Shown: positions 11,296 to 13,447 of the stretch, one piece after another
How positions within the stretch are numbered: position 1 is the first letter of the stretch
How the letters are laid out: each line of letters opens with the position of its first letter
NCBI GenBank assembly: GCA_903839035.1
Contig: CAIMAQ010000011.1
Coordinates: forward strand, 1-51,210
DNA from: an uncultured Opitutia bacterium
GTDB taxonomy: Bacteria; Verrucomicrobiota; Verrucomicrobiia; Opitutales; Opitutaceae
Direction: 5' to 3'
Length of the DNA: 51,210 nt
Position numbers and translations under genes: made by a program
The notes under the pieces: model-generated
What the model was told of the DNA's origin: nothing
Database searches by the model: none
What the model saw: only the letters and a program-made list of their open reading frames with translations

Positions 11296-11769
11296 ATGCC
11301 TTCCCAACCCATCCCGGGCTCGTCCGGCGAGATCCTGACCGAGCTCCCCTCGGCCTACCTGCCGCATCCGGCGACCGGTCTGCTGCATCTGCCGCGGTTC
11401 CTGGCGAAGTGCGCATACGTCAAGCGCCATGGCGCCCTGCCGGCCAGCTACGCGAAAAACTACAAGCGCGGGATGGACCGGTTCCTCTGCCTGCACCTGG
11501 GCATTGATCCGGCGGCGGTGGAAAAGATCGTGCACGAGTGCCTCGATGCCGGGCAGGACGACGCGGAGCGCGACCGGCGCCTGCGGATGCTTTTTCCCGC
11601 GGAACTGCGCGTGACCCAGTGGAACCGGAGCTACGTGCAGAAGGGCATGACGCCCGCCGGCCGCGAGTTTCTCGCGGAGGCCCTGACCGCGATGGGGTGC
11701 GCCGACCGGATCGGGCAAATTGCCAGTGTGGTGGATCTGATCGAATTCGACGAGGGCCGGATCGAGTAG
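11296..11769 (+). CDS. DUF5069 domain-containing protein (paralogue 1)
   Basis: 157 residues. The segment HPATGLLHLPRFLAKCAYV followed by ASYAKNYKRGMDRFLCLHLGI aligns with the DUF5069 protein at 43987-44439 (SPYAKVGRIVYFGRMLDKIR and VADYVPNLGKGFDLRCCSFL), and both end in a V.D.IEFDE / YIDFDED motif. The family has no established function and is common in Verrucomicrobiota and Planctomycetota. The protein is soluble with no signal peptide. ATG at 11296 was chosen because the domain starts some 20 residues later. It stands alone between two repeat elements. Confidence 0.75.
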   Translation: MPSQPIPGSSGEILTELPSAYLPHPATGLLHLPRFLAKCAYVKRHGALPASYAKNYKRGMDRFLCLHLGIDPAAVEKIVHECLDAGQDDAERDRRLRMLFPAELRVTQWNRSYVQKGMTPAGREFLAEALTAMGCADRIGQIASVVDLIEFDEGRIE

Positions 11770-11922: not shown

Positions 11923-11954
11923 AAAAAAGAGCCGCTCCCAAAAAGGAGCGGCTC
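11923..11954 (-). terminator. Intrinsic terminator of the 15-codon gene
   Basis: Read on the minus strand: GAGCCGCTCC (11954-11945), a six-base loop, GGAGCGGCTC (11938-11929), then six T (11928-11923). It is a perfect 10-bp GC-rich stem with a U run, 25 bases after the stop of the tiny gene at 11979-12026. There is no T run in the plus direction, so it serves only the minus strand. Confidence 0.85.
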
Positions 11955-11978
11955 ATGGGTTGAGCGAAGTAAGCGACC

Positions 11979-12026
11979 TTACTTCTTCTTTTTCTTCGCC
12001 TTCTTCTTAACGACTTTTTTAGCCAT
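11979..12026 (-). CDS. 15-residue lysine-rich mini-protein
   Basis: ATG at 12026 opens a 15-codon frame encoding MAKKVVKKKAKKKKK and stops at TAA (11979-11981). Eleven of the 15 residues are Lys, encoded by AAG and AAA. A good Shine-Dalgarno sequence AAAGGA sits about 10 bases upstream. An intrinsic terminator follows (11923-11954). The combination of SD, AUG, stop and terminator is why I report such a short frame. The product would be strongly basic and could bind nucleic acid or ribosomes (inference). Alternatives: the transcript acts as a small RNA, or this is the relic of a longer lysine-rich gene. It is not a leader peptide for a downstream operon, because the next gene beyond the terminator is convergent. 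Confidence 0.6.
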   Translation of the reverse strand: MAKKVVKKKAKKKKK

Positions 12027-12059
12027 GATGTTTTGTTCCTTTGTTGGTTAAGACCCGGC

Positions 12060-12085
12060 CGCGTCATCTCCGAATGGGTGACGCG
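12060..12085 (-). other. Stem-loop in the leader of the 15-codon gene
   Basis: CGCGTCA (12060-12066) and TGACGCG (12079-12085) form a perfect 7-bp stem with a 12-base loop, 34 bases upstream of the mini-gene ATG. It could be a 5' stability element or a remnant of processing from the upstream 361-residue gene's message. No -10/-35 pair is convincing in this 148-base spacer. Confidence 0.35.
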
Positions 12086-12174
12086 CGCGCGAGCCAGTGT
12101 GAAACTCTCCCTCACTGCGCAGGCGCGCAACACAAATGCGCGGGGAAAATTTCCCCACTCCGGCGCCCCCGTGC

Positions 12175-13260
12175 CTAACAAACAAAATCGCCGGGCGGGC
12201 TGACGCGTCCCGGATGGCCGATGACGCGGCGGATGGACTCGAGATTTTCGCGGACGAGTTCGCCCATGGATTCGCAGCGCAAATATTCGGGCCGCGAGTA
12301 ATGCAACGCGAGGCTGGCGCGAAGCTCGTGCACCTTCTCGCGCGGGGCGATCGGGTCCGGCACCATTTCCGTCAGCAGCGCGTTCAGGCGCAGATGGGCC
12401 AGCTCCGCGCGCTGCAACATCAGGGTCTGCTCCTCACGCTGGTATTGCAGCGCGGTCTGCGCGTGCAGGTGCTTGGTGCAATAGGTGACGATCGGGGTGT
12501 TCTCCTTGAAGAACTGGGGCAGGTAGAAGTTTTTCCGGCCGTTGTAGGATTGCTGGTCGAAATCCATCGCGCGGATGCGCACCTGGGCGCCCTCAAAGTC
12601 GGGGGTGATGACCACGACGTAGTTGTACGAGCGCATGTCCCCAAGCAGGCGCACGAAGCACCGCTCGTTGAACTTCACCATCTCCTTGGCCACGCGCACC
12701 GGGCTGAGCTGCGGGTCGTTCAGCCAGTGGTTGATGAACGCGTCACCGGGAATGCCGGCAATGTGCTCCTCGACGAGGGTTTTGCCTGCGGTGAGGAAGT
12801 TGAGGCGGTTCGGGGACAGCAGGTGCTCGAGTTCCAGGCCATAGACGCGCGAGGCGTCCGCCTTTTTGACGTAAAAGTAGTCCTGGTTGTCATTGTAGGC
12901 GTTGACGACGCGGATGCGGAAGGGCGTGGAGTTGCCGAAGCTGCAGAAATCCACGCGGTCCACGTAAACGTGCTCCATGATGGAGTGGTCACCGTCGACC
13001 TTGAGCAGCGCGTAGACGCGCTTCAGGTCCTCGTACAGCGCGGACATCTCGTCGGCGCGGTAGATCACGCTGTCCCAGAGTGTCGGCTTGCCCGCGGCGT
13101 CGGTCAGCGGCATCGCCTCCTGGAAATCGTAAAGCCGTTCGTAGGTGACCGGCAGTTCGCGCTCGCGCTTGTAGCGCGCGAGGTAGCCGCGCAGGCCGTC
13201 GAGCACGGGGAAGCACGGTTTTTTCCGCGTCGGAGGAAAGGGAGTGGTCAGGGCCTCCAT
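12175..13260 (-). CDS. Conserved-looking protein of unknown function, 361 aa
   Basis: I do not recognise this protein. It is soluble, without a signal peptide or membrane segment. Its composition and codon use match neighbouring real genes. Conspicuous segments are YERLYDFQEAMPLTD near residue 40, an aromatic block NAYNDNQDYFYVKKADASR, and IRAMDFDQQSYNGRKNFYLP. The last faintly recalls the metal-binding D-F/W-D loop of kinase-like folds, a guess only. A C-terminal REEQTLMLQRAELAHLRLN stretch is helical. The frame is open to 13413, but the upstream part is Arg/Ala-rich; ATG at 13260 has AAGGGTGG seven bases upstream and was chosen. It may be co-transcribed with the 15-codon gene downstream. 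Confidence 0.7.
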   Translation of the reverse strand: MEALTTPFPPTRKKPCFPVLDGLRGYLARYKRERELPVTYERLYDFQEAMPLTDAAGKPTLWDSVIYRADEMSALYEDLKRVYALLKVDGDHSIMEHVYVDRVDFCSFGNSTPFRIRVVNAYNDNQDYFYVKKADASRVYGLELEHLLSPNRLNFLTAGKTLVEEHIAGIPGDAFINHWLNDPQLSPVRVAKEMVKFNERCFVRLLGDMRSYNYVVVITPDFEGAQVRIRAMDFDQQSYNGRKNFYLPQFFKENTPIVTYCTKHLHAQTALQYQREEQTLMLQRAELAHLRLNALLTEMVPDPIAPREKVHELRASLALHYSRPEYLRCESMGELVRENLESIRRVIGHPGRVSPPGDFVC

Positions 13261-13447
13261 GCCGCCACCCTTGGGCCCCGCGGGCTTGGTGGCGAGCCGG
13301 CTCTGGGTCGGCGCGCGGAAAATCCGCCGGCCCCGGCGGTGAAATAGCTTCGGCTCCGCGCCTGCAATGGACCCGTGCCTTGATGGGTTTGCTCGCCGTA
13401 GGGCGGCCGCCACCCTCGGTCCGGCCCGGTGCGACCAGCCTCACGCG

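What the first reader, a model, noticed from the sequence alone, without database searches (positions are those of the whole stretch)
11923..12085. 15-codon lysine-rich mini-gene with SD, leader hairpin and its own terminator
Eleven of 15 residues are Lys (MAKKVVKKKAKKKKK). The unit has a leader hairpin (12060-12085), an AAAGGA SD, ATG, TAA and a strong minus-strand terminator. It stands between an unknown gene and a convergent one, so it is not an attenuator leader for a downstream operon. Such peptides are missed by gene finders. It could be a DNA/RNA- or ribosome-binding peptide, a dual-function small RNA or a stress-linked small protein. The function is inferred, not known.
Basis: partly seen in the sequence, partly recalled or inferred. 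Interest (0 to 1): 0.75.

Follow-up and report, generated by a model that had tools for sequence, protein, structure and literature searches.

The report
Tiny lysine-rich histone-tail-like gene
A real gene of only 15 codons makes a peptide that is two-thirds lysine; related bacteria keep it in the same place, some in longer histone-H1-like versions, so it is probably a minimal DNA- or RNA-coating protein.

Summary
It is a real gene. The unit (upstream motif, leader, SD, ATG, Lys-rich frame, stop, terminator) sits at the same locus in 25 of 28 genomes of four genera of one family (Opitutaceae by record titles). In 20 members picked by the upstream motif, codons 2-4 differ only at third positions (172 of 570 pairwise comparisons; 0 of 1140 at first and second). 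Two genus-mates lack the whole unit. In one related genus the syntenic gene has 19 to 113 codons; the 113-residue form passes Pfam's cut-off for HC2, histone H1-like nucleoprotein (53.1 bits, cut-off 40; 0 of 6 composition shuffles match), the shorter forms tested do not. A second set of 12-22 residue Lys-rich genes lies mostly between malQ and yebC in other genera. Best reading: a minimal, composition-driven H1/Hc2-like polycation on DNA, RNA or polyphosphate; this function is inferred. The leader hairpin shows no covariation in the window's genus, but a hairpin at the matching place does in two related genera. Attenuator and chance-frame readings are rejected.

The parts
11979..12026 (-). 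15-codon frame MAKKVVKKKAKKKKK plus TAA
   Evidence: Lys-rich frame at the same locus in 25 of 28 genomes of four genera
12037..12042 (-). Shine-Dalgarno AAAGGA, 10 nt before ATG
   Evidence: GGA before the ATG in 20 of 20 motif-picked members (frames had been listed only if an SD-like letter run preceded them, so this count is not independent)
11923..11954 (-). intrinsic terminator: GAGCCGCTCC...GGAGCGGCTC stem and T6
   Evidence: GAGCCGC...GCGGCTC in 22 of 24 members, 20-37 nt after the stop; of the other two, G154 runs off its contig and G074 has another stem, as has G031, the 25th carrier
12060..12085 (-). predicted leader hairpin (CGCGTCA/TGACGCG)
   Evidence: predicted; no covariation excess in 9 genus members; hairpin at the matching place in two related genera supported
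12125..12138 (-). upstream motif CATTTRTRTTGCGC, probable promoter element (inferred)
   Evidence: 25 of 252 family genomes, once each (reversed-pattern control: 9 hits); 20 of the 25 begin 111-128 nt before a MAKK frame. No sigma-70 consensus found
12175..13413 (-). upstream neighbour, unknown protein (frame of 412 aa), marker of the locus
   Evidence: no Pfam or NCBIfam match; found in 227 of 252 family genomes and beside 23 of 25 mini-genes
11296..11769 (+). convergent neighbour, DUF5069 protein (157 aa)
   Evidence: Pfam PF16798, 41.2 bits, cut-off 27; convergent beside 24 of 25 mini-genes (the 25th, G154, ends at its contig end)

Best explanation
The unit is a gene for a 15-residue, +10 peptide with its own terminator. 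It is the shortest form of a Lys/Ala(/Pro/Val)-rich, probably disordered protein of the bacterial histone H1/Hc2-like kind. Shown: it is kept as a coding frame with its own start, stop and terminator, and the same locus in related genomes carries 17-34 residue and 89-113 residue versions, one of which passes the Pfam HC2 cut-off. Inferred: the peptide acts by charge and composition, not by fold, as a protamine- or polyamine-like counter-ion on DNA, RNA or polyphosphate, and its length can vary because the binding is non-specific. Inferred: it is transcribed from its own promoter at the conserved upstream motif.
For: Same locus in 25 of 28 genomes of four genera: 9 of 12 in the window's genus, 5 of 5, 9 of 9 and 2 of 2; DUF5069 convergent beside 24 of 25, the upstream gene beside 23 of 25. 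Third-position-only change in codons 2-4 of 20 motif-picked members. Frame kept through lengths of 15 to 113 codons. G055 syntenic protein 53.1 bits to HC2, cut-off 40, the best HC2 match in 252 family genomes; 0 of 6 exact composition shuffles match. Known H1-like proteins vary in length through Lys-rich repeats and bind DNA (passages of PMC2848022 and PMC9239181). A second, unrelated locus carries 12-22 residue Lys-rich frames in 30 of 30 fetched loci.
Against: No expression, binding or phenotype data. The HC2 cut-off is met by one long orthologue only: 89, 101 and 34 residue forms score 21.3, 14.9 and 14.0 bits, and 32 and 20 residue forms do not match; NCBIfam cut-offs are not met. The HC2 model also rings, below cut-off, in 1 of 14 control genomes. 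Lys/Ala-rich sequence arises easily, so likeness of composition is weak proof of shared function: the N-terminus MAKKxxKKK also begins many unrelated longer proteins. Two genus-mates lack the gene, so it is not needed everywhere. Five of 25 motif hits lie elsewhere.
Confidence: 0.6

Rival explanations
1. The peptide is a ribosome-associated or ribosomal micro-protein, like the very small basic proteins bTHX and bL37 (recalled), and helps rRNA folding or translation.
For: Size and charge fit; one copy per carrier genome in the searches made.
Against: Length varies from 15 to 113 residues at one locus, other genera have a similar gene elsewhere, and it is missing in G009 and G010, which is unlike a ribosomal protein. 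The three neighbouring proteins scanned are not ribosomal.
Confidence: 0.15
2. A dual-function RNA: the structured leader or the conserved terminator acts as a small RNA, and the peptide is secondary.
For: Leader hairpin with covariation in two related genera; terminator 5' arm GAGCCGCTCC in 19 of 22 members with that stem; the leader is better kept than DNA further upstream (71% against 47%).
Against: The frame is the best kept part (86%) with a coding pattern. The leader model finds only the 14 loci it was built from in 252 genomes and misses the window's genus (run with strict filters). No Rfam family reaches its gathering score. No covariation in the window's genus.
Confidence: 0.12
3. A leader peptide with Lys codons plus terminator, that is, a lysine attenuator.
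For: Run of Lys codons followed by a terminator.
Against: The next gene beyond the terminator is convergent (DUF5069) in 24 of 25 carriers, so there is nothing to attenuate; the terminator starts 20-37 nt after the stop codon and frame length varies freely.
Confidence: 0.03
4. A remnant of a longer H1-like gene, decaying and without function.
For: Longer forms exist at the same locus.
Against: Long forms sit among short ones in the tree of the neighbour protein, and the short frame is kept with start, stop and third-position-only change.
Confidence: 0.05

Closest known systems
Hc2 (HctB) and Hc2-like histone H1-like proteins (Pfam PF07382)
   Same: Lys/Ala-rich with Val, Thr, Pro; length varies; one syntenic orthologue passes the Pfam cut-off. 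PMC2848022, passages: Hc2 of 165-237 aa binds DNA and varies by repeat number.
   Different: 15 residues against 165-237; no room for a repeat array; the window peptide is too short for the model.
AlgP / PhaF C-terminal KPAA repeat domain
   Same: Disordered Lys/Ala/Pro-rich tail; AlgP associates with polyphosphate granules and fragments of the tail bind DNA (PMC9239181, passages).
   Different: There it is a tail on another domain; here there is no other domain.
BpH1 of Bordetella pertussis
   Same: Lys-rich H1 homologue with size variation; the knock-out grows like wild type (PMC2848022, passages).
   Different: Longer and with pentamer repeats.
Very small basic ribosomal proteins bTHX and bL37 (recalled)
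   Same: Very short and highly basic.
   Different: Fixed length and sequence; recalled, compared in no call.

Membership tests
Hc2-like histone H1-like protein (PF07382) | Profile match at or above the gathering score (40 bits) | tested here: inconclusive
   Met by the syntenic 113-aa G055 protein (53.1 bits); not met by 89, 101, 34, 32 and 20 aa orthologues. The 15-aa window peptide is below the tool's 20-residue minimum and was not scanned.
Hc2-like histone H1-like protein (PF07382) | Lys/Ala-rich composition and high net positive charge | tested here: met
   +10 on 15 residues; +9 to +48 over 24 members
Hc2-like histone H1-like protein (PF07382) | Tandem Lys-rich repeats with length variation | tested here: inconclusive
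   Length varies 15-113 at one locus, but the window form is too short to hold a repeat array
Hc2-like histone H1-like protein (PF07382) | Binds and condenses DNA | not testable with these tools
   needs purified peptide
Attenuator leader peptide | Operon downstream on the same strand | tested here: not met
   convergent DUF5069 gene in the window and beside 24 of 25 carriers
Attenuator leader peptide | Alternative antiterminator pairing across the frame | not tested
   -
Known Rfam RNA | Match at gathering score | tested here: not met
   0 matches in the window and in 4 relatives' loci; only four sub-threshold matches, E 0.11-0.51
Ribosomal micro-protein | Presence in ribosomes | not testable with these tools
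   needs ribosome purification

The most novel reading that the evidence does not exclude
Bacteria of this family make stand-alone 12-34 residue 'histone tails' as complete proteins, from at least two unrelated loci, and full Hc2-like histone H1 homologues arose in place from such a seed by repeat expansion. The long forms sit inside a clade of short ones, so the micro-protein would be the older, functional state and the histone-like protein the derived one.
Probability: 0.35. Interest if true: 0.75.

Novelty: new variant of a known kind. Interest (0 to 1): 0.55.

Why it matters
If translated and nucleic-acid binding, it would be a very small stand-alone chromatin-type protein. It would show that the charge composition of an H1 tail can be a whole gene, give a natural length series (12 to 113 residues) for testing how length sets nucleoid binding, and offer a case of how a histone-like protein may be born.

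Tried and rejected
Attenuator: rejected, the next gene is convergent. Non-coding RNA with a chance frame: rejected by codon pattern and frame-keeping length changes. Known RNA family: none at gathering score. Sigma-70 consensus promoter: none found. First leader helix P1 in the related genera: not above shuffles. Covariation in the window's genus: none above shuffles. Terminator stem as a repeat: the two other copies of its 10-mer in the window have no second arm or T run beside them. A second copy at the malQ locus of the window's genus: none in 12 of 12. Literature: eight paper searches ran; no listed title or abstract start describes these mini-genes, and passages of the sORFdb paper (PMC11796252) do not either. 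The codon count (19 members) is circular, since most members were found with a pattern that fixes first and second positions; the motif-picked set replaces it. The DNA alignment mixed strands and was used for no count; the genus loci were instead read by script.

Full report
Observation. The minus strand carries SD AAAGGA (12042-12037), ATG (12026-12024), a 15-codon frame MAKKVVKKKAKKKKK, TAA (11981-11979) and a terminator (stem 11954-11929, then six T). Lysines are 10 of 15, not 11. Among frames read from the first ATG after a stop, it is the only one in the window with at least 10 codons and 40% Lys. The upstream gene (12175-13413, same strand) has no Pfam or NCBIfam match; the next gene beyond the terminator is DUF5069 and convergent.

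Where it comes from. The window is G000:C11.

It is a gene. A DNA search of 141 relatives gave 22 with a match; 8 of these are of the window's genus, own genome included, and cover most of the unit. A codon pattern matched 20 of 252 family genomes, with 1 hit of the reversed control; one of the 20, G295, is a long unrelated protein. Reading the locus next to the conserved upstream gene (found in 227 of 252 genomes) gave carriers the pattern had missed. In all, 25 of 28 genomes of four genera carry it: g1 9 of 12, g39 5 of 5, g45 9 of 9, g21 2 of 2. DUF5069 is convergent beside 24 of the 25 (G154 ends at its contig end) and the upstream gene lies beside 23 of 25, not G011 and G031. In G009 and G010 the two neighbours nearly abut and the unit is missing; the locus of G005 was not read. 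Of 41 loci read in other genera (7 of the 30 loci, 34 of the 36 stretches), none has a Lys-rich ATG frame there; several of these stretches are short because the contig ends (down to 199 bases).

Coding test on a set not picked by the frame. The motif CATTTRTRTTGCGC occurs once each in 25 of 252 genomes, against 9 hits of the reversed pattern. In 20 of 25 it begins 111-128 nt upstream of a frame that starts MAKK; the other 5 do not have one. Over these 20, codons 2-4 differ at third positions in 172 of 570 pairwise comparisons and at first and second positions in 0 of 570 each; the members are related, so these are not independent events. Within eight genus members the frame is 86% identical, the leader 71%, the 3' region 71% and the DNA further upstream 47%.

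Length series. Peptides have 15-16 residues in eight g1 members and 20 in G007, 17-21 in g39, 21 in both g21 members, and 19, 26, 31, 32, 32, 34, 89, 113 and at least 101 in g45 (the last runs off its contig). The 113-residue form matches Pfam HC2 at 53.1 bits (cut-off 40); 89, 101 and 34 residue forms match below it; 32 and 20 residue forms do not match. None of 6 exact composition shuffles match, nor did 3 hand scrambles. HC2 is matched at E 0.001 in 30 of 252 family genomes, over the cut-off in 8, in 0 of 12 of the window's genus, and below cut-off in 1 of 14 control genomes. In a tree of the upstream neighbour protein (32 rows; G011 and G031 have none) the long forms sit within g45 among short ones; the root is a midpoint, several forks are weak and G154 is a long branch, so the direction (short to long) is likely, not proven.

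Leader RNA. In g39 and g45 (14 sequences) a 12-pair hairpin before the SD is paired in 95.2% of cells; percentage paired, covariation score and cells with two-sided change exceed all 500 shuffles, while pairs with two-sided change (26 of 500 shuffles reach it) and further pair types (126 of 500) are weaker; the slid versions score lower on pairing and covariation, though two of them show as many pairs with two-sided change. As the tool warns, related sequences can exceed shuffles. A first helix is not supported. A covariance model of the g39/g45 leader finds those 14 loci only among 252 genomes, with filters that lose weak matches. So the leader seems to belong to this gene; a regulatory role is open.

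A second locus. A DNA search with a similar mini-gene from G080 matched 56 of 252 genomes; 5 of these, in the window's genus, are the window's own gene, and some weak matches cover the terminator only. All 30 loci fetched (the query locus among them; the other matches were not read) hold a 12-22 residue Lys-rich frame, two of them with an in-frame ATG further upstream, and by eye most have a strong GCCGGC terminator. In 27 of 30 both malQ and yebC homologues are near, in one only malQ, in two neither. No such frame is near malQ in 12 of 12 genomes of the window's genus. By eye these frames lack a clear SD close to the ATG.

Interpretation. The pattern is that of a small basic protein whose composition, not its fold or length, is under selection. 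The nearest described proteins are Hc2/BpH1-type histone H1-like proteins and the KPAA tail of AlgP (passages seen: PMC2848022, PMC9239181). I file the window peptide as working like these, not as a tested member: the family profile cannot be applied to 15 residues, and its medium-length orthologues do not reach the cut-off. Whether the target is DNA, RNA, ribosomes or polyphosphate is not settled by sequence.

Noticed in passing
L271-L300: Second set of 12-22 residue Lys-rich mini-genes, mostly between malQ and convergent yebC in other genera, with a GTGCA-type element upstream and by eye no clear SD: possibly leaderless or unusually initiated.
   Followed up: partly
L143 5076-5102 (-), L180 3122-3148 (+): 21-residue Lys-rich frames MAKKAAKKKTAKKAKRATKRK and MAKKTAKKKAAKKAKRATKRK in two planctomycete records, with similar upstream sequence: perhaps another micro-protein of this kind in another phylum.
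   Followed up: no
window 12175-13413: Upstream neighbour protein is found in 227 of 252 family genomes but has no Pfam or NCBIfam match: a conserved protein of unknown function.
   Followed up: no
L269 (G011), L268 (G031): The mini-gene and its convergent DUF5069 partner remain although the upstream neighbour gene is not on the fetched stretch.
   Followed up: partly
L266 (G154): The neighbour gene beside the long (at least 101-residue) form has an internal TAA in this genome.
   Followed up: no
L010 (G126), L013 (G029): Long Lys/Ala-rich proteins whose ends (KKVAKKKAAKKKKK) resemble the mini-peptide.
   Followed up: partly
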